A stretch of DNA of 64,000 nucleotides. It comes from Lachnospiraceae bacterium. Lineage in GTDB: Bacteria > Bacillota > Clostridia > Lachnospirales > Lachnospiraceae. Position numbers and translations under genes: made by a program. The notes below the pieces were generated by a model. That model saw nothing but the letters and a program-made list of their open reading frames with translations, was not told where the DNA came from and did no database searches. Every line of letters begins with the position of its first letter. The first letter of the stretch is position 1. Shown in pieces: positions 45,574 to 64,000 of the stretch. Location: NCBI GenBank assembly GCA_016283275.1, contig JAEEMP010000038.1:1-64000 (forward strand). Direction: 5' to 3'.

Positions 45574-46105
45574 CGGTGTTAACAAAAAACCGAATATCGT
45601 ATTGTTTGCCTCTGTTACATCGCTTTTGCTTCTTTTGCTGCTTGTTGGGATATTCTTTTTTCACAGAGCCGATAAAACGGGAACATATGCAGCAAAGGCG
45701 CATGAGACTTATGATGTATCGGGTATATCCGCCTCAAACATTCCGGATGATCTTTCCGCTATGGTCTTAAACAGCATGGATCCGTGGGAATCAGGGGATT
45801 TTGATGAATATACGGGAGAAAAGATAGATCACAGAAGGCGGCTGAGACTTAAAGAATACATAGTGGCAAGGAATGAAAAGTATATAGTAAAGCTTTCTGA
45901 AGGTTTTACATTTTCTGTATTTGAATATGATCCATCGGGTGCTTTTTTGAAATCGGATGATTATATCAATGGTGAGATCATTGCCTTAAGTCCTCAAACA
46001 GCTACATTCTGCGTGAGCATTAGAAGAGATGAGGACGAAAAAAAACTTTCGCCAGGACAATGGGGCAGATTTATACGTGAGTTGGATATAATGTTGTTGT
46101 ATTGA
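45563..46105 (+). CDS. Single-pass membrane protein, unknown
   Basis: A 180-aa protein with one N-terminal membrane helix (IVLFASVTSLLLLLLLVGIF) and a mixed extracellular domain of about 140 residues (QTATFCVSIRRDEDE). No family recognised. It overlaps the beta-helix lipoprotein gene by 11 bp and precedes the polymerase gene by 12 bp, so it is likely an accessory assembly factor. Confidence 0.75.
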   Translation: MTNDGVNKKPNIVLFASVTSLLLLLLLVGIFFFHRADKTGTYAAKAHETYDVSGISASNIPDDLSAMVLNSMDPWESGDFDEYTGEKIDHRRRLRLKEYIVARNEKYIVKLSEGFTFSVFEYDPSGAFLKSDDYINGEIIALSPQTATFCVSIRRDEDEKKLSPGQWGRFIRELDIMLLY

Positions 46106-46117
46106 TCGGAGAAAGAT

Positions 46118-47431
46118 TTGAAGGTAGCAGTAAATAAAAAGCATTTAATATTTTCAATTGCATACTTTTTTACGATGTTAACGCTTCTTCTTAACCAGAT
46201 AGAGGCGCTGCCGTTTGCTATCGTATTTCGAAAGACGAAATATGCCTACGTTGCGCTTGTACTTGTGCTTTGGATGACCGGCAACAGGATAAGACGCGGA
46301 TCTTGGCTTGCGATATGTAGCTGGAGTTTGTTTTTTATACATGCCGTGTTCTTTGGATATGTATTTAATACTACAGAGGGTGCGCATATAGCGGCAGAGA
46401 ATATTTCGGTTAATGTTACGCAGATGATATGGTATCTTTTGATGGTTCTTGCCACATACCTTTATGTGTCGCAAAACGGAATTTTTAAACTGTTTATTAC
46501 ACTCAGTTTTTATGTGACCGGGCTCCAACTGTTAATAGCTGCTGCATTACATCGACAGGATTTTGTGAATCCTGTCTGGGGACTTATCCAATCCTTTACG
46601 GCTGATATAAGATATAAAACGCAATTTGGATTTATCCATGCAGGATATCTTTCAAATGCAACATATCTTGTTGTCGTTCTTTCGTTGTTCTTTTTCGAAT
46701 TGTACAGACATGATCCGGATAAGCGTATCAGAAGTATCATGTGGATAAGTCTTATATTTTTAGATGTTCTGGCACTTGAGATGCTGATGTGTGCTGCCGA
46801 AAGGGCGGGTATCATATCAACAGTCATTCTTTTGTTCATATATTTTATATTTGTGTTTTTAAGAATAAGACTGGAAGCAAGAACAACCATTTTATTGATA
46901 ATGGCCGGCGTATTTTTCGTTTTTGTCATGGCTTCGGCGGGAGTGTTTACCCATATATGGGATAAGTCTAACAGAGCGCTGAATATTACGGTCAATTATC
47001 CTATTTTTTTGAAACTTGGTAATATCTGGACGGGGATGGGCTTTGTGGACAGTTCAGGTTTTCACGAAGATATTCTTGCTTTTGGTGACAGAACAAGCTC
47101 ATTGGATATGTATTATGTATATATCTTCTTTACCACAGGTATAATAGGTTGTATTTTAATAGGTTTAGGGCTTATGACCATACTCGTAAAACTGTTTTCG
47201 TTAAAGAAAACGGACCTTAATATAACTGCTATTGCATTATATGTCTCATGGCTTTTCTTTGCTTTTTGGCAATGTAATATGGTGACTTACAGATATCCGT
47301 CGCCGACTATTTTATATACAATTCTTTTGTGTGCCGTAAGCAGAGGATTCTGCAAGGATGAGAATACTTTGGGAATGGTAAAAGAGAAGGTTAAAACAGA
47401 TTATCCTGTTGAAGATATTTTGGTAGTATAA
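46118..47431 (+). CDS. Polysaccharide polymerase (Wzy/O-antigen ligase-like)
   Basis: A 437-aa membrane protein with 10-12 hydrophobic segments and one larger outer loop (about residues 295-340, GMGFVDSSGFHEDILAFGDRTSSLD), the layout of Wzy polymerases and O-antigen ligases. Sequence conservation in this group is low, so the assignment rests on topology and operon context. TTG start with GGAGAA 6 bp upstream. Confidence 0.75.
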   Translation: MKVAVNKKHLIFSIAYFFTMLTLLLNQIEALPFAIVFRKTKYAYVALVLVLWMTGNRIRRGSWLAICSWSLFFIHAVFFGYVFNTTEGAHIAAENISVNVTQMIWYLLMVLATYLYVSQNGIFKLFITLSFYVTGLQLLIAAALHRQDFVNPVWGLIQSFTADIRYKTQFGFIHAGYLSNATYLVVVLSLFFFELYRHDPDKRIRSIMWISLIFLDVLALEMLMCAAERAGIISTVILLFIYFIFVFLRIRLEARTTILLIMAGVFFVFVMASAGVFTHIWDKSNRALNITVNYPIFLKLGNIWTGMGFVDSSGFHEDILAFGDRTSSLDMYYVYIFFTTGIIGCILIGLGLMTILVKLFSLKKTDLNITAIALYVSWLFFAFWQCNMVTYRYPSPTILYTILLCAVSRGFCKDENTLGMVKEKVKTDYPVEDILVV

Positions 47432-47449
47432 TTATTTTTTAAGGGTGAG

Positions 47450-48553
47450 ATGAAAAACGCAGTTTTACAGATAATGAATTATGCCGCGGTTTATCGTGGT
47501 AATTTTATGGAATCATTGACGGCTTTGGACGAAAGGCTTAAAGAGAAAGATACTGTTACAATATATCTTTTTTGTAAAGACGCCGAGAAGGCCGCAAAGA
47601 TATGGATCGATGATATGGTCAGTGCAGGGGATATTGTACGGTTTTTGAGCGACGATCATAAAGCTGATGTGAGACTCATTAAAGACCTGATAAGGGAGTA
47701 CAATGTAAAACTGATACATACGCATTTTTTGACAATGCCGCAGTTTTTGTCGATATACTGCGCCAACAGACGATCAAATCTGCCGATAGTTATGCATATG
47801 CATAATCATTCTAAAAAAGCCGGTAACATAATTAAGAGAAAAATTTCTCATTTCATTTACCGGAAATGTTATATGGTTGCCTGCAGCAAGTCTGTGTATG
47901 ACAGTCTTATAAGGGATTACCCGAAGAATAAGAAATGCTATATTGACAACGGGGTCTATTTTGAAAGACTTGAAAAATTTGAAACATTGGATAAAAGGGA
48001 TTTCGGGGTGTCAGAGGATGAAAAACTTCTGCTTATCTTTGGCTTTGATTTTTACAGAAAAGGAGTAGATCTTGCCATAAAGGCTGTTTCCGATCTTCGA
48101 AAAGCAGGTTTAAAGTATTCTTTACTTGTATCACTTTCTACCAATTTCGAAGAAGCGGAGTCCAATGTAAAGAAAATATTGGGAGAAGTACCTGATTGGA
48201 TAAAGCTTATAAAAGCACGGAGTGATGTTGCATCGTTTTACAATGCGGTCGATATGTTTTTATCACCTTCGAGGGAGGAAGGTCTTCCGTATTCGGTCAT
48301 TGAAGCAGAGTATTCAAGGTGTAATGTTGTTCTGAGCAATATTTCCGCGCAGATACATCTTAAACTTAAGTATGGGGTCTGGTTTAAAAAGGATGATCCG
48401 GAAGATTTAAAAAACGCTATACTTAAGGCTGAGAAGTTAAGAGAAGAAAAACTTAATAATATGGATAGTGTAAAAGAATTTATGAGGGAGAATTATTCTC
48501 TTTCAAAATGGGTGGATGAAGTTGTTGAGTTATACGGAAGTATTTTATCATAA
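47450..48553 (+). CDS. Glycosyltransferase family 4
   Basis: A 367-aa GT-B enzyme. The N-terminal domain includes LIHTHFLTMPQFLSIYC and MVACSKSVYDSL. The donor domain has LLIFGFDFYRKGVDLAIKAV and FLSPSREEGLPYSVIEAEYS (EX7E-type). The nearby polymerase and chain-length genes place it in repeat-unit assembly. Confidence 0.9.
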   Translation: MKNAVLQIMNYAAVYRGNFMESLTALDERLKEKDTVTIYLFCKDAEKAAKIWIDDMVSAGDIVRFLSDDHKADVRLIKDLIREYNVKLIHTHFLTMPQFLSIYCANRRSNLPIVMHMHNHSKKAGNIIKRKISHFIYRKCYMVACSKSVYDSLIRDYPKNKKCYIDNGVYFERLEKFETLDKRDFGVSEDEKLLLIFGFDFYRKGVDLAIKAVSDLRKAGLKYSLLVSLSTNFEEAESNVKKILGEVPDWIKLIKARSDVASFYNAVDMFLSPSREEGLPYSVIEAEYSRCNVVLSNISAQIHLKLKYGVWFKKDDPEDLKNAILKAEKLREEKLNNMDSVKEFMRENYSLSKWVDEVVELYGSILS

Positions 48554-48589
48554 ATGTAAAGGAATAATTGAATTATCCTAGGAGGAGCC

Positions 48590-49918
48590 ATGGTTAAAGA
48601 AAAGAATGATTATATTTTGATAGACTTTACGGGGTTGATCAAAGCTATGTTTAATAGCTTGTGGTTTTTGATCGCAGTTGGAGTTTTGGGTGCTGTGCTG
48701 ACTTATGCCGTAGGCTATATATACACGAGTAATATCCAGTATACGCCCATGTACTCGTCTACCGTAAAATTATATTCAACTTCTGCGTATTCAAGTGCAT
48801 CAAGAACGGCATCAACTCAGATGAATGATTATTATGAAATAATGAGGACAAGAAGAGTGGCTAATCAGGTCATTTCCGATTTTAACCTCAATATGACATA
48901 CAGGGAATTTACCGGCCAGATAAGCAGATCGATGGTAACGGATACCAATATGATGTATATTACCGTAATGTTTCCAAATGCGGAGGTAGGCAAAGAAATT
49001 CTGGATGACCTGATAACAGTAACATCTGCTTATGCCCTTGAGATAATGGGAACGATTCCGGTAGAAGTATACGATGAAGCACAGGTTGCCGAAAGACCGT
49101 CAAATGTACCCGTATTGCCCACCAAAAAACTTCTTGTATTTGGTTTCGCAGGCAGTTTTCTTCTGGCATTCCTCATAGTTTTATTTTTGTTTTTATCCGA
49201 CAATAAGGTCAGAACCTCCGAAGATGTTAAAGCAGAATCCAAACTCGATGTTCTGTCTGCGGTTCTGGATAAGAAAAACAAGAAAAGTCCCGGGATAAAT
49301 AAAGCATCCATGCAGAGTCTGTACGGAGAACTTCGAATGATCAAGCCGGATGCGAAAACCATATGCTTCTACACATTCTCTGATGAAAATAAGGGAAGCG
49401 TTATCAAAGATTATCTGTCATTCCTTACGGAAGCAGGCAAGAAAGCCGTATACCTTGATACGGAGATCACCAATCCAAAGTGGGGCATAGAAGTATCGGA
49501 GGAAAGTAAAAACTCACTTAACGACTATCTTGAAGGCAAGGTTAATGATATTGCCAAGATAACTTCCAAAGATGATGGCGGAAATTATATTAAGCCGGTT
49601 CAGGCAAACAATACTATTGAACTGCTTACCGGCAATTCATTTGATACCCTTATCGATAAACTGAGGTCCGAGTATGATGTAATTCTCGTAGATACTGCCC
49701 CTTTTGCATATTCCGCTGAAGCCAAAGTAATAAGAGGAAAGTTTGATGTAACCATAGTCGTTGCTCAACTGGGCAAGACAAAACGTGAAGATTGTGCTTC
49801 TCTTTCAAACAGTTTTAAAGAGAACGAGCTTGACGGCGTTATCGTTACAAATGTAAAAGGAAATATAAAGAAGAAGGCATTTAAGCGTGAATACGGTCGT
49901 TTCATGGGGTTATATTAA
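48590..49918 (+). CDS. Chain-length determinant protein fused to a degenerate BY-kinase domain
   Basis: A 442-aa Wzz/CapAB-like protein controlling polymer length. TM1 (about 20-45) and TM2 (about 183-205, preceded by Pro-rich ERPSNVPVLPTKK) flank the extracytoplasmic domain. The C-terminal 185 residues have the fold pattern of a bacterial tyrosine kinase, but the Walker A GxxGxGK(S/T) is missing: the matching place reads YTFSDENKGSVIK. The Walker A' Asp is also altered (VYLDTEITNP), and there is no C-terminal tyrosine cluster. Walker B-like VILVDTAPF remains. It is probably a catalytically dead scaffold. No separate phosphatase gene was seen. Confidence 0.85.
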   Translation: MVKEKNDYILIDFTGLIKAMFNSLWFLIAVGVLGAVLTYAVGYIYTSNIQYTPMYSSTVKLYSTSAYSSASRTASTQMNDYYEIMRTRRVANQVISDFNLNMTYREFTGQISRSMVTDTNMMYITVMFPNAEVGKEILDDLITVTSAYALEIMGTIPVEVYDEAQVAERPSNVPVLPTKKLLVFGFAGSFLLAFLIVLFLFLSDNKVRTSEDVKAESKLDVLSAVLDKKNKKSPGINKASMQSLYGELRMIKPDAKTICFYTFSDENKGSVIKDYLSFLTEAGKKAVYLDTEITNPKWGIEVSEESKNSLNDYLEGKVNDIAKITSKDDGGNYIKPVQANNTIELLTGNSFDTLIDKLRSEYDVILVDTAPFAYSAEAKVIRGKFDVTIVVAQLGKTKREDCASLSNSFKENELDGVIVTNVKGNIKKKAFKREYGRFMGLY

Positions 49919-50685
49919 TGGAAGAATCAAGAAAGATTCCCAAAATAATACATTATTGCTGGTTTGGCAGGGGAGAGAAGCCTGGTAATATTAAGGCTTT
50001 TATCGCAGGCTGGAAGAATTTACTTGATGATTATGAATTTATCGAGTGGAATGAAGACAATTTTAAGATAGAAGAGGCTCCGATCTATGTACAGGAGGCA
50101 TACAGTGTCAGAAAATTCGCATTTGTAAGCGACTATGCAAGAATAAAAGGACTGTATGAAAAAGGCGGAGTATATCTTGATACGGACATTGAGATAGTAA
50201 GGCGGTTTGATGAACTTTTGCCCGGCAGGGATCTGGTTCTCGGATTTGAAAGCGACAGATCGCTTGAAACTGCATTTATGGCAGCTACACCGGAAAATGA
50301 ACTGATCGGTGGATTTCTTAAGACATATGAGAACAGAAAGTTTATAAACGAAGACGGCTCATACGATATGTCGGTGATCAATGAACATTTCAGTTCTTTT
50401 ATGAGTCAGAATACCGATATAGATCTTGATGATGAGAGGTTAAGAGAATTTGAAGAGGGAAAAATAGTTGTATATCCAAGAGACTATTTTGCTGCGTTTG
50501 ATATAAGTAACTGGCATATAAAACCCACTGAAAATACTTATACCATTCATCATATGAATGCCAGCTGGAGCTCAAAGAAAAAGAAACTTTATTTTTCGAC
50601 CATAAAGGCTCTGCAGCGGATTCTTGGAATAAAGGGTTACGATAAGCTTAAAGGGGCTTATGACAAATTAAAGAAAAAAGGCTAA
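49918..50685 (+). CDS. DXD-containing glycosyltransferase (GT32 type)
   Basis: A 255-aa sugar transferase of the capsular polysaccharide/GT32 group: KIIHYCWFGRGEKPGNIKAF at the N-terminus and GLYEKGGVYLDTDIEIV, where DTD is the metal and nucleotide-binding DXD. ATG overlaps the stop of the chain-length gene by one base. Confidence 0.9.
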   Translation: MEESRKIPKIIHYCWFGRGEKPGNIKAFIAGWKNLLDDYEFIEWNEDNFKIEEAPIYVQEAYSVRKFAFVSDYARIKGLYEKGGVYLDTDIEIVRRFDELLPGRDLVLGFESDRSLETAFMAATPENELIGGFLKTYENRKFINEDGSYDMSVINEHFSSFMSQNTDIDLDDERLREFEEGKIVVYPRDYFAAFDISNWHIKPTENTYTIHHMNASWSSKKKKLYFSTIKALQRILGIKGYDKLKGAYDKLKKKG

Positions 50686-50700
50686 ACTGATTATTTGATT

Positions 50701-52917
50701 ATGGGGAAAGATCAGATGGATGAAATCACAAGTCAGGTATTGACAGCGGTAAAGGCTGCAATTGCAAAAGAGAAGGCGGTATTTGAGGGCGATGTTGACT
50801 GGTATAAGTTAAGAGATTATCTGAAATTCGGCATACTCGACGGTATGTCATTTTCAGCTGTTTTGCCGAAGACTTTTAAAGATGATACAGAAGCCTCATT
50901 TTTGAACAACTGGAAACAATATTCTTTCCAGAGAGCAGTCAAGCAGATGGCGTCTGTGGGTTCTCTTTATAATGTACTAAAAAAGGGTGAAGAAGCAGGT
51001 GCAAAACCTGTAATATTTAAAGGAATAGTGCTGGCCTCTTTGTATCCGGAACCTTTTATGAGGTTTTCATCGGATGCCGATATATATGTGACACCTTCTG
51101 ACAGAAAAATAATGGAAGGTGTTTTTGATGAACTTGGATATAAGCTTATACCTGAAGTTTCCAAGGAACACGTTCCGCATTATGTGGGAACGGGTAATAA
51201 TGCCGCATTCCATATAGATCTTCATGACTGCCTCTGGGAGGACTATGAGGGAAAGCAGGCAAAACTTTTGGATTCCCTTAAATTGACCGATCCCGATACT
51301 TTTATTGAAGTTGAAGCCTGTGGGATAAAAGTCAGAACGCTTGGCATTACCGAACATCTGATTTTTCAGGTATTTCATGTAGTTAAGCATTTTGCGACCG
51401 AAGGGCTTCCTTTACGTTTTGTTACCGATCTTGCGCTTTATTCAAGGAAGTATGCTGACGAGATTGACTGGAAACGCTTTTGGAGCACTATGATGCTTTT
51501 GAAGTACGACGTGTTCTATAAATCGATCATGGAAGGGGCCAAAATATATCTTGGGATCGATGCTGATATTAAAGCACCCGAGAATATGAAACCCGGAAAT
51601 GTTGAGCTGCTTTTTGAAGAAATAGTGGCTTACGGACACAGAAAAAGCGATAACATTGAACATTATTTCGCGATCGGCTTTATATCCGGTTATTTTATGC
51701 GAAACAATACAAAGCAAAAAGGTCGTCTTTCTCAATTTCGTGCCAGATATTTTCCTTCAAGATCTGAACTTAAGGAAAAGTACGGATATGCCAAAAAGCA
51801 TGGCATATTACTCCCGATCGCATGGATACACAGATTGTTTGGCGCTTTAAGATTTTCTTTGATAAGTCGCAATAAAGGTATAGCGACAAAAGAAGTGCTT
51901 GAAAAGGCCAATGAAAGAGTAGGATTAATGAGCAAATACGGTCTGCTGGAAGAAAAGGGAGAAGAGAAGGCTTTTAACCCCGAAGACGTTTTGGTAAGTG
52001 TTGTAATCCCCACTTATGCAACTTCCGATTCGCTTAAAAGAGCGCTCGATTCCATACTCAGCCAGACACATACAAAACTCGATATTATCGTTGTGGACGA
52101 TAATCCTGCGGATTCCGATTACAGAAAAAAAGCCGAATCGGTGATGGATGCATATAAATATAATGATAATATCCGTTATATTAAAAATCCTCAAAATCTG
52201 GGCGGTTCCGGAGCACGAAATGTCGGTATTGAGGCGGCTAAAGGTGATTATATAGCTTTCCTCGACGATGATGATTATTATTATCCCACAAAAATAGAAA
52301 AGCAGCTCAATGTTTTTCTTAATACCGGGTTTTCGGAACTTGCACTTGTTTATTGTGATGTAGCTTATGAAGATAATTATGGCCGCATTACTTATATCGA
52401 GAGAAAGAGAATAAGAGGCAATTCGCTGTATAAGGCTTTAAAAGACGGCTGTATTGCCGCAACATCTCAGTGGCTTGTAAAAAAGAAAGCATTGCTCAGC
52501 GTGGGCTGTTTTACGATATTGCCGTGCAAACAGGATTCAACTGTTTTATTAAAACTATTGCGCGCAGGTTACGAAGTTGATTATGTGCCTGAGATATTAA
52601 GTATCTATCATGATGGTGTGGGAGAAGTCAGGATAAGTTTGGGATCCCGAAAAGTCGAAGGAGAGCTTACTTATGCCAACGCGTGTCGTGAATGTTACGG
52701 TGAGTTTACCAAACACCAAAGAAAACAGGTAGAATTCGGTATCGCCAAAAGGCTTTATGAAATATGGGCATATAAAGCGAACGGTGAAGGTGAATGTAAG
52801 AAATATTTATCGGTGATGAGAAAATCCGCACCGTTTAGAACATTTAAATTTCTTATAAGAACAAGACTGAGGTTGATTAAGAGGAAAGTGATCAAATGGT
52901 CAAAACAGCACTTATAA
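50701..52917 (+). CDS. NTP_transf_5-like nucleotidyltransferase fused to a GT2 glycosyltransferase
   Basis: A 738-aa two-domain protein. Residues 1-400 fit the uncharacterised nucleotidyltransferase family PF14907 (PVIFKGIVLASLYPE, FMRFSSDADIYV with the catalytic Asp pair, FHIDLHDCLWED). Residues about 435-700 form a GT-A family 2 enzyme (VSVVIPTYATSDSLKRALDS, IIVVDDNP, AFLDDDDYYYP). PF14907 proteins accompany lasso clusters; in the pseudomycoidin system the homologous protein adds sugar to the phosphorylated peptide. The gene could therefore serve either the exopolysaccharide or the RiPP 5 kb downstream. ATG 50716, behind GGGGAAAG, is an alternative start. Confidence 0.85.
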   Translation: MGKDQMDEITSQVLTAVKAAIAKEKAVFEGDVDWYKLRDYLKFGILDGMSFSAVLPKTFKDDTEASFLNNWKQYSFQRAVKQMASVGSLYNVLKKGEEAGAKPVIFKGIVLASLYPEPFMRFSSDADIYVTPSDRKIMEGVFDELGYKLIPEVSKEHVPHYVGTGNNAAFHIDLHDCLWEDYEGKQAKLLDSLKLTDPDTFIEVEACGIKVRTLGITEHLIFQVFHVVKHFATEGLPLRFVTDLALYSRKYADEIDWKRFWSTMMLLKYDVFYKSIMEGAKIYLGIDADIKAPENMKPGNVELLFEEIVAYGHRKSDNIEHYFAIGFISGYFMRNNTKQKGRLSQFRARYFPSRSELKEKYGYAKKHGILLPIAWIHRLFGALRFSLISRNKGIATKEVLEKANERVGLMSKYGLLEEKGEEKAFNPEDVLVSVVIPTYATSDSLKRALDSILSQTHTKLDIIVVDDNPADSDYRKKAESVMDAYKYNDNIRYIKNPQNLGGSGARNVGIEAAKGDYIAFLDDDDYYYPTKIEKQLNVFLNTGFSELALVYCDVAYEDNYGRITYIERKRIRGNSLYKALKDGCIAATSQWLVKKKALLSVGCFTILPCKQDSTVLLKLLRAGYEVDYVPEILSIYHDGVGEVRISLGSRKVEGELTYANACRECYGEFTKHQRKQVEFGIAKRLYEIWAYKANGEGECKKYLSVMRKSAPFRTFKFLIRTRLRLIKRKVIKWSKQHL

Positions 52918-53942
52918 CTATCTGGATGGGCGGAAACTTTCCCGAATGGTTTCCTTTGTGGGTAAGATCTGCTTCTTTAAATCCTGAATTTGATTATTAT
53001 GTCGTAACAGACAGAGAATGGACATGGGATATTTCCAATATTCATTATATTTCGATGAATTTAAAAGAGGCAGAGTCTGTTTTTGAAAAAGTTATCGGTA
53101 TGAAGATCTGTTTGAAGACACCGTATAAACTTTGTGATTATAAACCCGTCTGGTGGGCAGTAATAGGCGAAGCCATTAATGATTATGATTACTGGGGACA
53201 TATAGATACCGATGTAATATACGGCAATTTAAGCAAGTTTTTAACCGAGGATTTGCTGAGCGATCATACAAAGATATTCGAACAGGGAAATCTTACAATT
53301 TACAAAAATACCGAAGAAATAAGGAATATCTATAAAAAGAGTGCCCTTAAGGATAATATGGCTTATTCTTACAAAAAGGCATTTCGTACAAATTGGGCCT
53401 GTTATTTTGATGAATATATGGGTATGAATCTCTTGGGAGATAAGTATTTTAAGGTGTTAAGAGACCAGCTTACCGAGAATTATATTCAGGATTTCTCGTG
53501 GCAGCATTTAAATTTTACATCTTATATTACCAAAGAGGATTTCATTTTCAAATGGGATAACGGCCATCTGTTCAGGTATATCGTGGATGGGGAAGGCAGG
53601 CTGAAAACGGATGAGACCGGTAAGCTTATCGTGAAAGAGTTTTTACTCTGCCATATACAGAAGCGCCGGATGGAAATAGTTTCGGAGCTTAAAGATGATT
53701 TTGCGGATATTACAAATATAAGCGGATTCTGGATAATTCCGAATAAGTTTACCGTAAAAGAACCCGAGGGCGCTTTATATACCGAAAAAGACAAGGTCGA
53801 ATATGAGGAGCTTATCAGGGTAAAAGATAAGCAGCGTCAGATCGACAATATGAAGCGAAACGGGATATTCTCATATATTCCCCACAGGTTAAGGACTAAA
53901 AAGATAGTTGGTTATATAAGAAAAGAAAAAGGCTTTTTCTAG
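52896..53942 (+). CDS. Glycosyltransferase-like protein (DUF6625 type)
   Basis: A 348-aa protein with a GT-A-like N-terminal half (LITIWMGGNFPEWFPLWVRS, DYDYWGHIDTDVIYGNL with a DXD-type DTD) and a basic C-terminal tail. It resembles the DUF6625 family found in capsule clusters; donor and acceptor unknown. It overlaps the upstream fusion gene by 22 bp with the SD GAGGAAAG inside that gene. Confidence 0.8.
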   Translation: MVKTALITIWMGGNFPEWFPLWVRSASLNPEFDYYVVTDREWTWDISNIHYISMNLKEAESVFEKVIGMKICLKTPYKLCDYKPVWWAVIGEAINDYDYWGHIDTDVIYGNLSKFLTEDLLSDHTKIFEQGNLTIYKNTEEIRNIYKKSALKDNMAYSYKKAFRTNWACYFDEYMGMNLLGDKYFKVLRDQLTENYIQDFSWQHLNFTSYITKEDFIFKWDNGHLFRYIVDGEGRLKTDETGKLIVKEFLLCHIQKRRMEIVSELKDDFADITNISGFWIIPNKFTVKEPEGALYTEKDKVEYEELIRVKDKQRQIDNMKRNGIFSYIPHRLRTKKIVGYIRKEKGFF

Positions 53943-53960
53943 AAGTTGGGGAGGGTAGAT

Positions 53961-54959
53961 ATGGATGATATTAAGAATGCGATCATAAGTGTTATAGTAC
54001 CGGTATACAATACCGAAAAGCATTTAAATAATTGCCTGGAAAGCATTATCGGTCAGACTTATAAAAACCTTGAGATAATCATTGTGGATGACGGTTCGAC
54101 CGACGGATCGCTCGATCTCTTAAAAGAGTGGGAAAAAAAGGATGAACGTATAAAGCTATTTCATAAGGAGAATGGGGGAGCTGCTTCCGCCAGAAATATC
54201 GCGCTTGAACATGCAACAGGTGAATATATTTCGTTTGTGGATTCGGATGATATCATTACGGAAAATATGTTTGAGTACATGCTGGAAACACTTGAAAAGT
54301 ATGATGCTGACATCTGTCAGTGCGGTATGGAAGAAATCCGTGAAAGCGGGTCCAAAATGGTATTATCGGGCAATGAAGAGTTTGTGGCCACGGATAAAAG
54401 GTTCTGGGAACTGGTAAGTAACGGAGATATGCCTTCTGTTTGTATATGGACTAAGTTATATAAAAGCGCATTATGGGAAAAGATCCGCTTTCCCGAAGGG
54501 CATGTTTTTGAGGATGAAGCCATTATCCTTCAAATGTTAAAGAATAAACCGAGGATCGTTATCGTTCCGATGCCGTTTTATAATTATCTGCGTATGAATT
54601 CCACAGTCATGCGTAATCTTAAAAGTGAAGACGAATTGTATAAGAGCAGTGTACTTTTCGAAAGAATGGATTATCTCTTCGAGCAAAAATACGCAAAATG
54701 TGTCCGTAGATCTTTTGCATACGGAATAAGGTTATTGTGCAAGTGTTATAAAGATAAAGCATTCATGAGAAGTGCATCCGGTTCGGATGATTTTTATAAA
54801 CTTAAAGCTGCCTGGGTCAGCAAAGCCAAAGAAGCATCCAAACTTGTGGACGATCCCCAATTTAAATTTATGATGTTTTTGTTAAGGGTTAATTGGCCTT
54901 TGTATGTATTTATTCAGCAAATATTCAGTCCTATACACGACAGAAAGGCCGGAAAATAA
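53961..54959 (+). CDS. Glycosyltransferase family 2
   Basis: A 332-aa GT-A enzyme with ISVIVPVYNTEKHLNNCLES, IIIVDDGSTDGSLDLL, NGGAASARNIALEHATGEYI and FVDSDDIIT (DXD-type). A helical C-terminal tail may contact the membrane. The start ATG 53961 has GGGGAGGG 5 bp upstream. It is the last clear glycosyltransferase of the operon. Confidence 0.9.
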   Translation: MDDIKNAIISVIVPVYNTEKHLNNCLESIIGQTYKNLEIIIVDDGSTDGSLDLLKEWEKKDERIKLFHKENGGAASARNIALEHATGEYISFVDSDDIITENMFEYMLETLEKYDADICQCGMEEIRESGSKMVLSGNEEFVATDKRFWELVSNGDMPSVCIWTKLYKSALWEKIRFPEGHVFEDEAIILQMLKNKPRIVIVPMPFYNYLRMNSTVMRNLKSEDELYKSSVLFERMDYLFEQKYAKCVRRSFAYGIRLLCKCYKDKAFMRSASGSDDFYKLKAAWVSKAKEASKLVDDPQFKFMMFLLRVNWPLYVFIQQIFSPIHDRKAGK

Positions 54960-54987: not shown

Positions 54988-56115
54988 GTGTCTGAGAAGA
55001 ATAGTATGTGGGCTCATTATATTGTCGATCTTAAAAAATTTAAGGCAAACTGTGATGAAGTAACAGTTCATTTTAACAATGAATGGAATAATAACGTAAT
55101 ATACGGATACTCCGTAAAGACGAACAGAGACAGTAAATTGTTAAAGTATGCTGTCGAAAAACTGGGCTGGTATGCCGAGATGGTAAGTCCCGATGAATAT
55201 GATTATTGTAAATCGGAAAATATCTCTGCGGGCAGAATGATCTTGAACGGTCCGTGTAAAGAATCAATGATATCGGAAGGCAATTATCGGGTAAAATATA
55301 TTAATCTTGATAATTTAGATGAAGTTTCAGTTTTCTGCAGCAAAGAAAAGGCAGATTTAAATGTCGGTTTAAGAATTAATTTTGATCTGGAAAAATTATG
55401 TCCGGGCGAGACTACTGCGGGCGATGAAGTGAGCAGGTTCGGTATAGATGCAGAGAGTGAGGATATAAAAAAAGCTGCCAAAATGCTTAAAGATGCAGGG
55501 TATGATAAGTTTGGCTTACATCTTCACACAAGCACCAAGACCAGAAGCTTAAAAGTTTTTGAATCGCTGGCAAAAGAGGCGTTAAAGCTTAAAGAAGAAC
55601 TGAATATCGATTTTTCTTTTATAGATATGGGAGGAGGTTTCTTTGGTGGACAGGTGGTAAGCGGAAAGCCTTCAATGCGAGATTATGCTGATACGATCTG
55701 CACTGTGTTAAGAAACGGATTTGATCCTGCCAAAACTACGCTAATTTTGGAGCCCGGTGCTTCGGTATTGGCTACCTGTGTATCGTATAAAGCCCAAGTA
55801 ATAAATGTAAGGAAGATAAGAGGGATAAATGTTGCCACTATCAACGGCACTTTGCTTCATTTAAACCCTTTTATGTCAAAAAGAAATCAGCCTTATGTGA
55901 TCTGTTCGGATGTCGGTTCACGAAAAAATGCAGAAAAGCAGATCATCTGCGGAGCAACGTGTATGGAAAATGACAGACTGGCTGTTGCCATAGATTCTCC
56001 GGAACTTGAAAAAGGCGATGAGCTCCTTTTTGGTAATGTCGGAGCTTATACAATGACATTTAATGCATATTTTATTCTTGATCCTCCAAAGACCGTTTAT
56101 ATAGGAGACGAATAA
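54988..56115 (+). CDS. PLP-dependent group IV decarboxylase (ornithine/diaminopimelate type)
   Basis: A 375-aa alanine-racemase-fold decarboxylase. PLP lysine is Lys44 in YGYSVKTN, the phosphate site is DMGGGFFGG, and the second-subunit catalytic cysteine is Cys325 in ICGATCMENDRL. It is shorter than LysA (about 415 aa) and lacks its typical ends, so the substrate may be a carboxy-amino acid other than meso-DAP. It sits 28 bp after the GT2 gene and 9 bp before the B2 peptidase gene, so it is coexpressed with both. A role in a tailored or conjugated amine building block is possible. Confidence 0.85.
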   Translation: MSEKNSMWAHYIVDLKKFKANCDEVTVHFNNEWNNNVIYGYSVKTNRDSKLLKYAVEKLGWYAEMVSPDEYDYCKSENISAGRMILNGPCKESMISEGNYRVKYINLDNLDEVSVFCSKEKADLNVGLRINFDLEKLCPGETTAGDEVSRFGIDAESEDIKKAAKMLKDAGYDKFGLHLHTSTKTRSLKVFESLAKEALKLKEELNIDFSFIDMGGGFFGGQVVSGKPSMRDYADTICTVLRNGFDPAKTTLILEPGASVLATCVSYKAQVINVRKIRGINVATINGTLLHLNPFMSKRNQPYVICSDVGSRKNAEKQIICGATCMENDRLAVAIDSPELEKGDELLFGNVGAYTMTFNAYFILDPPKTVYIGDE

Positions 56116-56124
56116 GGCAAAATC

Positions 56125-56583
56125 ATGGTATCTATTATCAGTTTTATCAAGCATAATGACAATAAAATGATGACTGTCCAAGCATGGGCATATGCTGCCT
56201 GGTACAGGTTTTTGATAAGATTCAGGTCCCGTAAACATCTTGAGAAACATTGGGGTGTTTTAGGCGAGGAAACCGGTCAGACTCTTACGCTTGAACAGTA
56301 CAAATATGCACGGCTTGTGTCACGACAGGTTAACCGTATCGCCAATCATACACCGTGGGAAAGTAAGTGTCTGGTTCGTGCACTTGCTGCCCGACGCTTT
56401 TTGTGTAAGAAAAAAATATCCAATACTCTTTATCTGGGTGTGGGGAAAGATGAGACAGGAAAGATGGTGGCCCATGCATGGATCCGTGCGGGCTCTGCGT
56501 ACGTAACAGGCGGAGACGGCTCTGAGTATGCGACCGTAGCAATGTTTAAGAACGAATTTAAGGATGAAAGTCAAAGCGATTAA
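56125..56583 (+). CDS. Lasso peptide B2-type leader peptidase (transglutaminase-like)
   Basis: A 152-aa protein of the transglutaminase-like B2 family that removes the leader from lasso precursors. The catalytic Cys82 is in WESKCLVRALAARRFL and His117 in VAHAWIRAG; Asp131 in GGDGSEYAT is the probable third residue. The N-terminal 70 residues are a basic helical part typical of B2. No B1 domain is fused to it. It is the last gene of the long polysaccharide operon, 9 bp after the decarboxylase gene, and 130 bp before the precursor gene. Confidence 0.9.
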   Translation: MVSIISFIKHNDNKMMTVQAWAYAAWYRFLIRFRSRKHLEKHWGVLGEETGQTLTLEQYKYARLVSRQVNRIANHTPWESKCLVRALAARRFLCKKKISNTLYLGVGKDETGKMVAHAWIRAGSAYVTGGDGSEYATVAMFKNEFKDESQSD

Positions 56584-56712: not shown

Positions 56713-56916
56713 ATGAAGAAGTTTAACAATGCTGAAGTCGTAGAACTTAGTCTTGACAAGACAGAAAATGGTCTTTGGGATAGCGATATCGAGACAAATG
56801 TATGCGGTGGAGGTTGGAATCCCTTTTATTTATTCACAGAGAATGATAGTAAAAAGCCTGAACAGCCTACAGATCAGAAGCCTGTAACACCTGCTGATGA
56901 GACTTCACTTTCATAA
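56713..56916 (+). CDS. Lasso-like precursor peptide 1
   Basis: A 67-aa precursor. The leader MKKFNNAEVVELSLDKTENG aligns without gaps to the peptides at 16.5 and 62.0 kb. If cut before Gly20, Glu27 is at ring position 8, so a Gly1-Glu8 macrolactam is possible. The conserved Thr17 would then be at -3 instead of the usual -2. The core would be 48 residues, far longer than known lasso cores of about 15-26. It contains CGGGWNPFY, a Pro/Lys/Thr-rich tail and a C-terminal Ser (TSLS), the residue type phosphorylated by lasso kinases. The start ATG 56713 has AAGGAG upstream; the track's earlier start does not. It is followed by a terminator. Confidence 0.82.
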   Translation: MKKFNNAEVVELSLDKTENGLWDSDIETNVCGGGWNPFYLFTENDSKKPEQPTDQKPVTPADETSLS

Positions 56917-56931
56917 TAATGAATAGTAACG

Positions 56932-56970
56932 TCGGCCAGATCATATTTGATTTGGCCGATTTTTTTTTTT
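56932..56970 (+). terminator. Rho-independent terminator between precursor 1 and cyclase 1
   Basis: Stem TCGGCCAGATC/GATTTGGCCGA (one G-T pair) followed by T11. This would make precursor transcript more abundant than enzyme transcript. Confidence 0.9.
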
Positions 56971-58971: not shown

Positions 58972-59853
58972 ATGTATCAGTATCGTGCGTATGGTATAGG
59001 AATACATTCCGATTTTAAACTTTATAATTTTGATGAGACAAAGACAGATGCGGATGTATATATCCGCAAGATCCACTCGGGACTTGACAGAGCGGAATGT
59101 GCGCAAAAGAAAAAGTGGATAGAATATAATGACGATAATGCGTGGGTTATGAGTACTTTCGCCCAGTTTTTTATCAGGGAAGGAAAATATATTGATGTCT
59201 TTGTGGAAAAAGAGGCCACTTACATTGAAATTGCTGCTTTTATATGTGGCTGGTGCATGGCTTTTTTATTTACACAAAGGGGTTATTCCGCTATTCACTG
59301 TGCCGCTCTTGAGTTTGGCGATGGCTGTGTTCTTGTTTCGGGCACAAGCGGTGCGGGCAAAACGACGACATCTCTGGAGCTCATTAAGCGTGGGCACAGG
59401 TTTTTGGCAGATGATATAGCCATGATCCGCCCTGAAGATGATTTTCTGGTCCGGCCGGCTTTCCCTATGCAGAAAATATGCCGGGATGTTGCAGAAGCGA
59501 CACAGAATAAAGACTTACTTTATATAGATGCCGATAAGGATAAATTTGCAAAAATGAATTATGAAGACTTTTGTGACATACCTAAACCGCTAAAGGGAAT
59601 GGTAATGTTAAATAAGAGTTATGACGGCGATCTGGAGGTCACGGAGTACAAAGGGTTTGATAAATATTTAAAAGTATTCAGTTCGCTGTTTATTGGGAAA
59701 TTGTTTATAGATAACGGTGTAGATAAAAATGAACAGTACCGGATGTTAAAGCTGGCTGAGAAGATTCCTTATCTTTCGATAACCAGGCCGCTTAACAGTG
59801 ATACGCTTAATGAAGTTTGTGATGCCATAGAAGATTTTTACGGTCGGGAGTAG
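58972..59853 (+). CDS. HprK-like peptide kinase (lasso tailoring)
   Basis: A 293-aa P-loop kinase related to HPr kinase. Motifs: AIHCAALEF, Walker A SGTSGAGKTTT (residues 123-133), HRFLADDIAMI with the family DD. In lasso clusters such kinases phosphorylate the C-terminal serine of the precursor (paeninodin type). Precursor 1 ends in Ser, precursor 2 in Gly, so precursor 1 is the likely substrate. Cyclase 2 starts 5 bp after the stop. Confidence 0.88.
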   Translation: MYQYRAYGIGIHSDFKLYNFDETKTDADVYIRKIHSGLDRAECAQKKKWIEYNDDNAWVMSTFAQFFIREGKYIDVFVEKEATYIEIAAFICGWCMAFLFTQRGYSAIHCAALEFGDGCVLVSGTSGAGKTTTSLELIKRGHRFLADDIAMIRPEDDFLVRPAFPMQKICRDVAEATQNKDLLYIDADKDKFAKMNYEDFCDIPKPLKGMVMLNKSYDGDLEVTEYKGFDKYLKVFSSLFIGKLFIDNGVDKNEQYRMLKLAEKIPYLSITRPLNSDTLNEVCDAIEDFYGRE

Positions 59854-59858: not shown

Positions 59859-61778
59859 ATGTCTGCAATATGGGGAATAATCGGACGAAACGGTAATAAT
59901 GTCGAATCTCTTTTTAAGGATATGACCGATATTACTAAAAAATACAGGATCGACAGAACGGATTGCTTAAGCATCGGTAATGCATATTTTGCGTGTGGTC
60001 ATGCTCACATTACAAAAGAGGCCTTTCGTGATGTTTCTCCGGTTTATGATAAAAAGCGCGAAATATTGTTTACTGCGGATGCATTTCTCACAAACAGAGA
60101 TGAATTGACGGCAGAATTGTCACAAGCCGGTTCGACCTCTGATCCTGAAGAAGCGGGAGATGCATTTCTCTGTTATACAGCGTTTTTAACTTTTGGCCGT
60201 GATTTTGTAAAACATATCAAGGGCTCGTTTTCAGTTGCAGTGTATGATATCAATGCAAATAAACTGTCACTGTATGCGGATCCTATGGCAAGACGCTATC
60301 TTGCTTATCATATAGGGGATGGATCGGTATGCTTTTCCACAACATATGATCCCATTAAGAAATGCATGGGCAAGGTAGAATTAAATGAACAAGGTATAGT
60401 TGAATATTATACAAGTATTACGCCCAGGACATTCAGATCCCCCGATCTGACCGTATATAAAGACATATATCATGTTAATTGCGCACAGGTAGTGGACATT
60501 GATATAGCCTCGGGAAAGAAAATTCAAAAAACATATTACGAGGTGGGAAAAGGCTGTAAAACATTTAAGAACATCAGTGATGAAGAATGCAAAAAAATGT
60601 TTGTGGATACATATCGCAAATGTGTAAAGAGTATGTTAAGGTCTTCGGGTGAAACTGCTGTTTTATTGAGCGGGGGTCTGGATTCATCTTCGGTTGCGGC
60701 ACTTGCGGCTGAAGAACTTGCAAAAGAAGGCAAAGATCTTTACAGTTATACAATGCTTCCGGCATCCGGATACAAATATACCAACAGCCGGACGATTTCC
60801 GAAAACGAAAAGCCTCACGTTGAAGCTCAAAAAGAAATCCATCCGAATATAATTACCAATTATGTTACCGGTGACGACGGTTGTATCTTTACAAGACTTG
60901 ATGAATATACGGATCTTTTTGAATGCCCTGTAAAGGTTAGTAATATCGATAATATAATAAGAATGGTCAAGGAAGCCGATAAAGCAAATTGCAAACTGAT
61001 CATGGGCGGGGCAAACGGTAATGCCTCTGTTTCTTACGGCAGCATAATGTTATTGCTGTCGCATCATATTTTAAGATTCAGGTTTGTTAAAGCATATAAG
61101 GCACTTACCGAGTTTTGCCGGGCCAGACATATTCCCCGCAGATATATGGTAAAGTATTATCTTGAAAATGCAGTGAGATATTTTACTTCATATTTCAATT
61201 TCGGCTTATACGGATTGGTAAAAAAGGAGTATAGAAAAAAATATAATTTATTAAAACGCGAGAGAAAAGAGCTTCATGCGTACGGATCGGACATTTTCTC
61301 GACCAAACGCCAGCGGAGGGCATTCATTTATAATCGATATTTCTTTCAGCATATCGGATTTTATGATACTTATGTAAGCCTGCTGTATGGAGTATATACG
61401 GTCGATCCGACAGAAATGTTAGATATGATAGAGTTTTGTCTGAGGATTCCGATCGAATATCAGGTAAAGGGTGATATTGAAAGACGAACCATAAGAGAAT
61501 ATATGAAAGAATACTTACCGGAATGCGTATATTCAAATCGCGTAGGGCGCGGTATTCAGTGTGCGGATATAGATTACAGAGTTAATCGTGACTGGGAAGA
61601 TGTAAAAGAAGGGATCAGGAATGATCTGAGCAATCCTTTGCTTAAACATTATCTGGATAATGAAGAAATACGATCGTTGCTGAAACTTACAGAGGAAAGT
61701 AAAGATCCCATTTCCAGGATGGATGTTTTAAGATTATATGCGGTCTCTTCTTTGGGTTCATTTTTGAATAAACAATAA
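59859..61778 (+). CDS. Asparagine-synthetase-like lasso cyclase 2
   Basis: A 639-aa second cyclase-type protein (MSAIWGIIG, again no Cys2; LSGGLDSSSVAA at Ser271-Ser277). Where cyclase 1 has GHGGDEG this protein has LIMGGANGNASVSYGS, a variant like the GNxTxS form seen in other lasso cyclase-type proteins. The two cyclases are therefore not recent duplicates and may act on different precursors. The gene is 5 bp after the kinase gene and ends at a bidirectional terminator. Confidence 0.88.
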   Translation: MSAIWGIIGRNGNNVESLFKDMTDITKKYRIDRTDCLSIGNAYFACGHAHITKEAFRDVSPVYDKKREILFTADAFLTNRDELTAELSQAGSTSDPEEAGDAFLCYTAFLTFGRDFVKHIKGSFSVAVYDINANKLSLYADPMARRYLAYHIGDGSVCFSTTYDPIKKCMGKVELNEQGIVEYYTSITPRTFRSPDLTVYKDIYHVNCAQVVDIDIASGKKIQKTYYEVGKGCKTFKNISDEECKKMFVDTYRKCVKSMLRSSGETAVLLSGGLDSSSVAALAAEELAKEGKDLYSYTMLPASGYKYTNSRTISENEKPHVEAQKEIHPNIITNYVTGDDGCIFTRLDEYTDLFECPVKVSNIDNIIRMVKEADKANCKLIMGGANGNASVSYGSIMLLLSHHILRFRFVKAYKALTEFCRARHIPRRYMVKYYLENAVRYFTSYFNFGLYGLVKKEYRKKYNLLKRERKELHAYGSDIFSTKRQRRAFIYNRYFFQHIGFYDTYVSLLYGVYTVDPTEMLDMIEFCLRIPIEYQVKGDIERRTIREYMKEYLPECVYSNRVGRGIQCADIDYRVNRDWEDVKEGIRNDLSNPLLKHYLDNEEIRSLLKLTEESKDPISRMDVLRLYAVSSLGSFLNKQ

Positions 61779-61857: not shown

Positions 61858-62052
61858 TCAACCAGGCATGTTAATGTGCATTCCTTCTTCGTCTCCGCTG
61901 GGATAAGGAATACCATCTTGGATGGTGCTCTTATCGATTATTCTTGCATCCTTGTCTGCCCACTGAGCATCAAGACCTGTAGGATTGGGATCAGCCTGTG
62001 CGGTAGCCTTAAGACTAAGCTCGATAACTTCTGCATTGACAAACTTCTTCAT
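61858..62052 (-). CDS. Lasso-like precursor peptide 2 (minus strand)
   Basis: A 64-aa precursor, leader MKKFVNAEVIELSLKATAQA, nearly the same as precursor 1. After Thr17 the core could start at Ala20 with Asp28 as residue 9, or at Gly26 (after Thr25) with Asp33 as residue 8; either would allow a ring. The remaining sequence is acidic (DGIPYPSGDEEG) and ends in MPG, without the C-terminal Ser of precursor 1. The start ATG 62052 has AAGGAGG 8 bp upstream. Divergent from the B1-ABC genes and convergent with cyclase 2. Confidence 0.82.
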   Translation of the reverse strand: MKKFVNAEVIELSLKATAQADPNPTGLDAQWADKDARIIDKSTIQDGIPYPSGDEEGMHINMPG

Positions 62053-62313: not shown

Positions 62314-62580
62314 ATGGATCGTTCAACAGTGGTAAGGCTTACAAAACAGTTAAATGTTACTGACCTTTCGGGTGAAAAGGTTATGGTTGACTTTGAATCC
62401 GGTAAATACTTTTTAATCAAAGGTGTCGGTAATGACATATGGGAGCTTATACAGAATGAGATCACGGTAGGCGAGATCATAGATAAGCTTATGTCGGAAT
62501 ATGAGGTTGAAGAGGCTGTCTGTGAAAAGTCCGTTTATGACTTTTTGGATCGCCTTAAAGAGTTGGGGTTCATCGGATAA
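62314..62580 (+). CDS. PqqD-like lasso B1 protein (RiPP recognition element)
   Basis: An 88-aa winged-helix PqqD-family protein that binds the precursor leader and presents it to B2 and the cyclase. The fold pattern is a three-stranded sheet (VMVDFESGKYFLIKGVG) then helices (NDIWELIQNEITVGEIIDKL) and a C-terminal helix (FLDRLKELGFIG). AGGAGGG precedes the ATG. The stop is directly followed by the ABC exporter ATG, so the two are translated together. No kinase domain is attached, unlike the PqqD protein at 18.8 kb. Confidence 0.92.
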   Translation: MDRSTVVRLTKQLNVTDLSGEKVMVDFESGKYFLIKGVGNDIWELIQNEITVGEIIDKLMSEYEVEEAVCEKSVYDFLDRLKELGFIG

Positions 62581-64000
62581 ATGGGAAAACTAAAATCATT
62601 ATGGGATGACAGGAACAATCAGTATAAATATTTTAAATGGCTGATGTACTATTCAAAGCCTTATTTTTGGCGCATCGTACTTATGATGAGTTTCTCAATG
62701 ATAGGTACGGTGTTTTCACTTTGGATGGTAACCATATCCAAAAACATCATCGATCGAGCAACGGAATCGAACGGTACGGTGGGTGTCTTTGATAAGGGCG
62801 GATTTGGATATCTTATAATCCTGTATGTCAGCCTTATGCTTATCATGCAGGTTGTTAATATAGTTGCTTCCCTGTTAAGCCAGATAATTGTTGAGAAATT
62901 TTCATTCGGTATACGTAAACAGGTATATGAGAAGATCATCAATTCCACTTGGCTTGATATCACAAAGTATCACACCGGGGATCTGATGACCAGACTTACC
63001 AGTGATGCGGGAGCCATTGCCGACGGTATTGTAGGAACCATTCCGGGGATCATTCAGTTGATGATAGAACTTGTTATGGTCTTTTTTACTTTGTTTTATT
63101 ATTCTCCGATGCTTGCAATACTTGCATTGTGTATCGCTCCTGTAGCCGGGATCACATCCTGGTTTCTGGGACGTAAGATGAAGCGCCTTCAGGTTAAGGT
63201 TCAGGAATCCGAAGCCGCATATCGTTCTTTTATACAGGAAAGTCTTGCAAATGTTTTAATTGTTAAGTCTTTTGCCAATGAAGGTTATTCGGCTGACAGA
63301 CTTACAAAGCTCAGAGAGAACAGATTTTATTGGATATTTAAAAGAGCAAAACTGTCGCTTGCCAGCGGAACGGTTCTGGGTCTTGGTTTTCAGATCGGTT
63401 ATATTTCCGCATTTGCTTACGGAGCATATCAGATTTCCAGAAAACTTATTACTTACGGTACAATGTCGGTATTCTTAACATTGGTAAACCGTGTGCAGTC
63501 GCCTATAATAGGTCTTGCAAAGCAGATCCCGCACATAGCTTCCATACTTGCGTCCGCAGGACGTGTCATGGAACTTCAGTCTATTCCTTTGGAAGAAAAA
63601 CTGCCTGAAAATATCAATTCCGATGAAATAGGTATCAAGATCGACAATCTTACTTTCGGTTATACCGACGAGACGGTCTTCGAAGATGTATCGCTTGATA
63701 TCAAACCCGGCGAATTTGTGGCAATAATAGGTGAGTCCGGTATAGGAAAGACCACTTTGGTGCGTATCATAATGTCATTTATGAACGGACTTAAGGGAAA
63801 TGTAGCGTTTTATAACGGAAACGGAGATGTAGAGCGTGCAAATGCTTCCACAAGAGAATTTATAGCATATGTGCCGCAGGGTAATACGCTGTTTTCCGGT
63901 ACCCTTCGAGAGAATATTAGAATGGGTAATCTTAATGCGACCGAAGAAGAGATGTGGGATGCATTAAAACTTGCCGCAGGCTATGATTTTGTAAAAGATC
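62581..64000 (+). CDS. ABC exporter of the lasso-like cluster, 3'-truncated by the window edge
   Basis: The first 473 codons of a fused permease-ATPase exporter, beginning directly after the B1 stop. Six membrane helices over about residues 25-310 and an ATPase part with Walker A GESGIGKTTL and Q-loop YVPQGNTLFSG; signature and Walker B lie beyond the window. No C39 peptidase domain at the N-terminus. Paralogue of the exporter at 16.98 kb. Probably releases the mature peptide and gives self-immunity. Confidence 0.9.
   Translation, partial: MGKLKSLWDDRNNQYKYFKWLMYYSKPYFWRIVLMMSFSMIGTVFSLWMVTISKNIIDRATESNGTVGVFDKGGFGYLIILYVSLMLIMQVVNIVASLLSQIIVEKFSFGIRKQVYEKIINSTWLDITKYHTGDLMTRLTSDAGAIADGIVGTIPGIIQLMIELVMVFFTLFYYSPMLAILALCIAPVAGITSWFLGRKMKRLQVKVQESEAAYRSFIQESLANVLIVKSFANEGYSADRLTKLRENRFYWIFKRAKLSLASGTVLGLGFQIGYISAFAYGAYQISRKLITYGTMSVFLTLVNRVQSPIIGLAKQIPHIASILASAGRVMELQSIPLEEKLPENINSDEIGIKIDNLTFGYTDETVFEDVSLDIKPGEFVAIIGESGIGKTTLVRIIMSFMNGLKGNVAFYNGNGDVERANASTREFIAYVPQGNTLFSGTLRENIRMGNLNATEEEMWDALKLAAGYDFVKD

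What the first reader, a model, noticed from the sequence alone, without database searches (positions are those of the whole stretch)
56713..56916. Precursor 1 has an unusually long core and a serine C-terminus
Cut before Gly20, the core is 48 residues with a Glu at ring position 8 and a Pro/Lys/Thr-rich tail. Known lasso cores are usually 15-26 residues. The conserved leader Thr is at -3, not -2. Either the peptide is trimmed after cyclisation or this is a new subclass with a long tail. The terminal Ser fits the neighbouring kinase.
Basis: partly seen in the sequence, partly recalled or inferred. Interest (0 to 1): 0.7.

Follow-up and report, generated by a model that had tools for sequence, protein, structure and literature searches.

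The report
Long-tailed Glu8 lasso peptide precursor
A gut bacterium carries a gene for a knotted ("lasso") peptide whose tail is about twice the usual length; relatives show that the ring residues and the final serine are strictly conserved, that a dedicated ring-closing enzyme travels with it, and that published lasso surveys of rumen bacteria overlooked this subclass.

Summary
Precursor 1 (56713-56916, 67 aa) has a 19-residue leader, Gly20 as core residue 1, Glu27 at ring position 8, Thr at -3, and a terminal Ser: a 48-residue core. A scan with its adjacent cyclase C1 found 36 Clostridia loci. In 33 aligned C1-linked precursors, window included, Thr17 and Glu27 are invariant (33/33), Gly20 nearly so (32/33), and Ser is last in 31/33, while predicted core length runs from 21 to 53. 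So the "new long-tail subclass" option is supported; later trimming cannot be excluded.

C1 forms a clade deeply separated from the cluster's second cyclase C2. C1-linked precursors carry Glu8; C2-linked ones, including window precursor 2, carry Asp at ring position 9 (rarely 8). One B1/B2 pair appears to serve both.

One inference is probably wrong: the neighbouring kinase groups with C2-linked kinases. The terminal-Ser-type kinase is more likely a second one 17 kb downstream, outside the window (moderate support).

Thr(-3), long cores, C-terminal-region Ser and kinases were already reported for rumen lasso precursors (PMC7533575), but all listed cores are Asp8/9 type. The Glu8 subclass is not described in the papers I could read.

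The parts
56713..56916 (+). Precursor 1 (A1), 67 aa, Glu8-type lasso precursor
   Evidence: homologues
56713..56769 (+). Leader peptide, 19 residues, Thr17 at -3
   Evidence: Leader length and Thr17 invariant in 33/33 aligned C1-linked precursors
56770..56793 (+). Predicted 8-residue macrolactam ring Gly20(1)-Glu27(8)
   Evidence: G20 32/33, E27 33/33
56794..56910 (+). Post-ring segment: variable loop/plug region and disordered Asp/Glu/Pro/Thr/Asn/Lys-rich tail
   Evidence: P,E,D,S,T,Q,K,G,N make up 80% of pooled tails; pooled dN/dS 0.21 in related pairs
56911..56913 (+). C-terminal Ser67, conserved terminal residue
   Evidence: 31/33 homologues end in Ser
56931..56970 (+). Terminator-like hairpin plus T-run between precursor 1 and C1
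   Evidence: 13-pair stem; similar hairpin in 25 of 31 loci at the same place
56125..56583 (+). B2 leader peptidase
   Evidence: NF033537 E 5e-23 above cutoff, PF13471 E 1e-20; Cys82 and His117 with a downstream acidic residue; only B2 over the cutoff found in the genome
57000..58925 (+). C1, dedicated Asn-synthetase-like cyclase of the Glu8 subclass
   Evidence: PF00733; NF033535 E 3e-44, 151.6 bits, below its cutoff of 525; own clade 100*
58972..59853 (+). K1, HprK-like kinase, C2-linked type
   Evidence: PF07475 E 1e-10; groups with L020/L017 C2-linked kinases 100/98
59859..61778 (+). C2, second cyclase, of the Asp9 type
   Evidence: NF033535 E 4e-44 below cutoff; separate clade 100*
61858..62052 (-). 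Precursor 2 (A2), 64 aa, predicted ring Ala20(1)-Asp28(9), ends MPG
62314..62580 (+). B1/PqqD-like leader-binding protein (RRE)
   Evidence: NF033536 81.8 bits over cutoff 80; related to the TbiB1 and TfuB1 structures
62581..64000 (+). ABC exporter D, runs past the window end
   Evidence: PF00664/PF00005; full ORF 572 aa in L053 582-2300
50695..52917 (+). NTP_transf_5 plus GT2 fusion; possible tailoring of the phosphoserine (inferred)
   Evidence: PF14907 E 7e-34, PF00535 E 3e-31; membership in this pathway not shown

Best explanation
Precursor 1 is the substrate of a subclass of lasso-peptide pathways in Lachnospiraceae and related Clostridia. Shown by sequence: the A1-hairpin-C1 cassette, the invariant Thr(-3)/Gly1/Glu8 register, the variable-length tail with a fixed C-terminal Ser, and the separation of C1 from C2. 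Inferred: B1 binds the leader, a kinase of the terminal-Ser type (best candidate the kinase at contig 76017-76958) phosphorylates Ser67 on the linear precursor, B2 cuts before Gly20, and C1 closes the amide between the Gly20 amine and the Glu27 side chain around the threaded segment just after the ring. The remaining 20-30 residues stay as a flexible acidic tail ending in the (phospho-)Ser, and the ABC transporter exports the product. The same B1/B2 pair serves precursor 2, whose Asp9 ring is closed by C2. Least certain steps: retention of the full tail, which kinase acts on Ser67, and whether the product is truly threaded.
For: B2, B1 and ABC exporter next door, with B1 and B2 above curated cutoffs. 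36 C1 loci: 30 of the 32 with sequence upstream of C1 hold a precursor directly upstream with Thr17 and Glu27, 29 of these with Gly20; L037 holds a likely further one elsewhere in its locus. Thr17 and Glu27 33/33, Gly20 32/33, terminal Ser 31/33; core 21-53, median 41. Position 19 is N/D/G/H and others, so Gly20 rather than residue 19 is core residue 1. C1 and C2 are two clades, 100*; the 21 C2-linked precursors collected carry Asp at ring position 9 (18) or 8 (3). Tail dN/dS 0.21, close to leader 0.17 and ring 0.13 (synonymous sites partly saturated). Hairpin between A1 and C1 in 25/31 loci. [quoted passage not shown]
Against: C1 and C2 score well below NCBIfam's lasso-cyclase cutoff (152 and 151 against 525 bits), and no precursor model in Pfam or NCBIfam matches. 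Thr is at -3, not the usual -2. No chemistry is known for any member of this subclass. The adjacent kinase is not of the terminal-Ser-linked clade, and the alternative kinase lies 17 kb away. Two sister loci (L015, L016) end in SGK instead of Ser, and L036 has a C1 homologue without a recognised Glu8 precursor.
Confidence: 0.72

Rival explanations
1. The long core is trimmed after cyclisation: a carboxypeptidase or other protease removes most of the tail, leaving an ordinary lasso of about 20 residues.
For: L013 encodes the same architecture with a 21-residue core, so about 21 residues suffice for the pathway. Carboxypeptidase-truncated lasso peptides are seen on expression in cells (PMC13352647).
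Against: The terminal Ser is conserved in 31/33 across tails of very different length and the tail is under purifying selection (dN/dS 0.21). If the tail were discarded without a role, loss of the Ser would be expected. A dedicated trimming peptidase was not sought systematically.
Confidence: 0.25
2. Cleavage is before Asn19, Thr17 is at the classical -2, and the ring is a 9-membered Asn1-Glu9 macrolactam.
For: Thr(-2) is the textbook position (PMC10368454). Asn is the commonest residue at 19 (17 of 33), and 9-membered rings are common.
Against: Position 19 is variable (17 N, 7 D, 3 G, 3 H, others) while Gly20 is 32/33. Sabino et al. assign Thr(-3)/Gly(+1) to the related rumen precursors (PMC7533575).
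Confidence: 0.06
3. The neighbouring kinase K1 (58972-59853), not the distant K2, phosphorylates Ser67 of precursor 1.
For: It is 46 bp downstream of C1 and has a His/P-loop/Asp-Asp arrangement like known lasso kinases. Forcing it into the terminal-Ser clade is not significantly worse (p-AU 0.083).
Against: It groups at 100/98 with kinases placed 36-42 bp before C2 in L017 and L020, whose C2-linked precursors end in K. Among C2-linked precursors a terminal Ser goes with having only a terminal-Ser-clade kinase nearby (3/4 against 1/14, p 0.019, counted after seeing the tree).
Confidence: 0.25
4. Not a lasso: C1 makes an unthreaded branched-cyclic or otherwise different amide product.
For: C1 is far from known lasso cyclases in sequence (below cutoff); the closest solved structures are asparagine synthetases. 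Threading cannot be read from sequence.
Against: Bona fide lasso B1 and B2, the Gly1/acidic-8 spacing, and the two-cyclase cluster context are all lasso hallmarks.
Confidence: 0.12

Closest known systems
Putative rumen lasso precursors of Butyrivibrio, Lachnospira and Lachnospiraceae (Sabino et al. 2020, PMC7533575)
   Same: Same leader type (MKxWNxPE...T17), Thr at -3, Gly +1, long predicted cores (21-42 in the text; a 44 in Table 3), kinases and PqqD-like B1 in the clusters, conserved Ser in the C-terminal region
   Different: Their listed cores were selected for Asp at 8/9. The Glu8 subclass with C1 was not listed, although Butyrivibrio sp. MC2021 and VCD2006, in their set, encode it (L034, L033)
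Paeninodin / pseudomycoidin group (PadeK, ThcoK, PsmK, PsmN)
   Same: Split B1/B2, HprK-like kinase, C-terminal Ser on the precursor; pseudomycoidin also has a nucleotidyltransferase-like gene, as is found upstream here (50695-52917)
   Different: There Thr is at -2 and one cyclase is used; cores are about half as long and closed through Asp (own knowledge for the individual sequences). No NCBIfam precursor model matches here
Pandonodin and achromonodin-1
   Same: Lasso peptides with long tail or loop (33 aa with an 18-aa tail; 30 aa with a 20-aa loop; PMC13352647)
   Different: Both are proteobacterial (own knowledge for achromonodin-1) and much shorter than 48; pandonodin has a tail disulfide, while precursor 1 has a single Cys

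Membership tests
Lasso peptide (RiPP) | B2-type transglutaminase-like leader peptidase in the cluster | tested here: met
   NF033537 81.9 bits, cutoff 33
Lasso peptide (RiPP) | PqqD-like B1 (RRE) | tested here: met
   NF033536 81.8 bits, cutoff 80
Lasso peptide (RiPP) | Asn-synthetase-like lasso cyclase C | tested here: inconclusive
   Best NCBIfam match is the lasso cyclase model, E 3e-44, but 152 bits against a cutoff of 525; SGGLDS ATP motif present
Lasso peptide (RiPP) | Core residue 1 small (usually Gly) and Asp/Glu at 7-9 | tested here: met
   Gly20/Glu27 conserved 32/33 and 33/33
Lasso peptide (RiPP) | Thr at leader position -2 | tested here: not met
   Thr at -3 in 33/33. Exceptions to Thr(-2) are already reported: Ile(-2) (PMC10368454) and Thr(-3) predicted in rumen precursors (PMC7533575), so this usual but not strictly defining feature does not by itself exclude the class
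Lasso peptide (RiPP) | Threaded lariat topology | not testable with these tools
   Needs product isolation
C-terminally phosphorylated lasso peptides (paeninodin type) | C-terminal Ser on the precursor | tested here: met
   31/33
C-terminally phosphorylated lasso peptides (paeninodin type) | HprK-like kinase in the cluster, His-Lys-Asp-Asp type motif | tested here: met
   K1 in the window, K2 at contig 76017-76958; both with H, P-loop and downstream Asp-Asp pairs
C-terminally phosphorylated lasso peptides (paeninodin type) | Precursor matches a curated lasso precursor family model | tested here: not met
   0 NCBIfam or Pfam families for precursor 1

The most novel reading that the evidence does not exclude
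A distinct lasso subclass in gut Clostridia in which one leader peptidase feeds two cyclases that read different ring codes (C1 Gly1-Glu8, C2 residue1-Asp9). The Glu8 product keeps a tail up to about 40 residues beyond the ring, far beyond any isolated lasso, and presents a phosphorylated or glycosylated C-terminal Ser at its end as a functional handle.
Probability: 0.45. Interest if true: 0.72.

Novelty: new variant of a known kind. Interest (0 to 1): 0.58.

Why it matters
It defines a coherent Glu8/long-tail lasso subclass that surveys requiring Gly-x6/7-Asp would miss. It supplies naturally paired cyclases with different ring-size and acceptor specificity behind a shared leader peptidase, useful for studying cyclase selectivity, and raises a testable question: what a long disordered tail with a fixed C-terminal Ser is for.

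Tried and rejected
Precursor 1 against phages by tblastn and C1 against viral contigs: nothing. C1 against plasmids: only distant Asn-synthetase-like proteins at 21-27% identity among the rows listed. Solved structures for precursor 1: nothing; for C1 only asparagine synthetases and a hydroxyamidotransferase. Single-residue alternatives for the ring were checked: D23 and D25 are not conserved, E27 is. Asn19 as core residue 1 was rejected on variability. An alternative upstream start at 56671 was rejected because the RBS and homologues support 56713. No structure prediction was run: it would not decide threading or cut site. Tietz 2017 and Zhu 2016 were not held, so novelty is against the readable literature only.

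Full report
The ORF is real and is as described. Window 56713-56916(+) encodes a 67-residue peptide preceded by AGGAG; the stop is TAA at 56914. The window is part of a 90,784-base contig of a 2.46-Mb draft genome (85.8% complete); every related locus of the C1 family whose order of organism is named is Clostridia, mostly Lachnospiraceae. Around the ORF lie B2 (56125-56583), C1 (57000-58925), an HprK-like kinase K1 (58972-59853), a second cyclase C2 (59859-61778), precursor 2 on the minus strand (61858-62052), B1 (62314-62580) and an ABC exporter. B2 and B1 exceed their curated NCBIfam cutoffs. C1 and C2 have the lasso cyclase model as their best match but lie far below its cutoff.

Homologues were found in two ways. 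A weak tblastn with the peptide itself already gave three precursors beside C1 homologues (L003, L004, L009). A profile of those C1 proteins then found 36 loci (L011-L046) in Lachnospiraceae and other Clostridia, mostly gut and rumen assemblies plus Butyrivibrio isolates. Of the 32 loci that still hold DNA upstream of C1, 30 have a small ORF directly upstream with the same leader. L037 has a similar ORF elsewhere in its locus, with a TTG start, and L036 has none recognised.

In the 33 aligned C1-linked precursors the leader is 19 residues without indels. Thr17 is 33/33, Gly20 32/33 (Val in the divergent L046), Glu27 33/33. Positions 21-26 between them are hypervariable. Position 19 varies, so the +1 residue is Gly20 and Thr is at -3. 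Predicted core lengths run from 21 to 53 (median 41). The last residue is Ser in 31; L015 and L016, sister sequences, end SGK. Tails are 80% P,E,D,S,T,Q,K,G,N and the post-ring part is net acidic in nearly all. In related pairs the post-ring part has pooled dN/dS 0.21 against 0.17 for the leader and 0.13 for the ring; synonymous sites are partly saturated, so these are rough. The nearest homologues (L003/L023, L004/L012) share G-x-x-D-S-x-x-E-T and NDSKKP with the window but lack most of the VCGGGWNPFYLF stretch.

A terminator-like hairpin lies between the precursor and C1 in the window (56931-56960, 13 pairs, then ten T) and in 25 of 31 loci by a simple fold-plus-T-run test. The likely role is to keep precursor transcripts in excess over the enzyme (inference).

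C1 and C2 proteins fall into two groups separated by a long branch with 100% support. C2-linked precursors, from the same loci and from an independent search with C2, carry Asp at ring position 9 in 18 of 21 and at 8 in 3, counting from the residue three after Thr. One of them (L088) also has Glu at 8. Window precursor 2 is Ala1-Asp9 in this register. Thus the cluster has two precursor/cyclase pairs with different ring codes and a single B1/B2; no second B2 over the cutoff is seen in the 85.8% complete genome.

Kinases. A search of the genome gave a second HprK-like kinase, K2, at contig 76017-76958(-), beside a two-component system and outside the window. In the kinase tree a 23-row clade (100/97) holds nearly all kinases near C1 and includes K2; K1 sits with the C2-adjacent kinases of L017 and L020 (100/98). 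C2-linked precursors end in Ser in 3 of 4 loci that have only 23-clade kinases, and in 1 of 14 with another kinase (Fisher p 0.019). This comparison was framed after the first tree was seen, and L019/L042 were counted once. AU tests: K1 inside the terminal-Ser clade p 0.083, K2 with the K1 trio p 0.036. So the assignment of Ser67 to K2 is favoured, not shown.

Mechanism. From established work, HprK-like kinases phosphorylate the C-terminal Ser of the linear precursor before B2 and C act, and PsmN, a nucleotidyltransferase homologue, adds hexose to the phosphoserine of pseudomycoidin (PMC9266682). The window has an NTP_transf_5/GT2 fusion at 50695-52917, a candidate for such a step, but it lies among glycan genes and its link to this pathway is inference.

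Known and new. Sabino et al. 2020 (PMC7533575) reported Thr(-3), cores of 21-42 residues, a conserved Ser in the C-terminal region and kinases in rumen lasso precursors, selected for Asp at 8/9. Their list gives only Asp-type precursors for Butyrivibrio sp. MC2021 and VCD2006, both of which encode Glu8 precursors (L034, L033). The 2026 Hungate survey required Gx7D (PMC13289728). The longest isolated lasso peptides named in a 2026 review are 30-33 residues (PMC13352647). I found no description of the Glu8/C1 subclass, with the caveat that Tietz 2017 and other subscription papers could not be read.

Open: whether the full tail is kept, whether the product is threaded, and which kinase acts. The subclass is uncommon: C1 homologues in 5 of 392 genomes sampled across the order, all in the same family.

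Noticed in passing
L017:11046-11282, L021:4378-4611, L038:1683-1895: A third precursor kind with the same leader but Gly-rich core, in L017 and L021 with CRCxGGTSPCxxHH; those two have their own tightly paired kinase (clade 100/100) and a nearby NTP_transf_5/GT-like gene. Not an obvious Gly1-Glu8 or Asp9 lasso core.
   Followed up: partly
L025:13358-13588 and L044:12126-12347: Conserved small ORFs (MKKAY..P.VE.L.F..T...ILSSTGE) downstream of C1 with divergent C-terminal halves; perhaps another RiPP precursor.
   Followed up: no
61858-62052 (-): Precursor 2 is a C2-linked Asp9 type with Ala in place of Gly at core residue 1; it has an internal Ser-Gly found in most C2-linked precursors, possibly the K1 target.
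   Followed up: partly
43741-54959 and contig 67420-74442 (L053:5421-12443): The lasso genes sit inside a long run of glycan-synthesis genes (glycosyltransferases, Wzx-like flippase, ATP-grasp, aminotransferase, acetyltransferase).
   Followed up: partly
54988-56115: A PLP-dependent decarboxylase (LysA/FslC-like) ends 9 bases before the B2 start; its role here is unknown.
   Followed up: no
contig C58:74509-76958 (L053:12510-14959, -): Histidine kinase, response regulator and kinase K2 in one direction, outside the window; similar to the WalK/SrrA plus HPr kinase association reported in PMC7533575.
   Followed up: partly
L083:11277-11480, L084:7922-8125, L087:8646-8837: A small C2-linked group with TAH[NAR]W and D-G-G-Y-I-G-D-G core, Asp at position 8, non-Gly residue 1, all ending in Ser.
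   Followed up: partly
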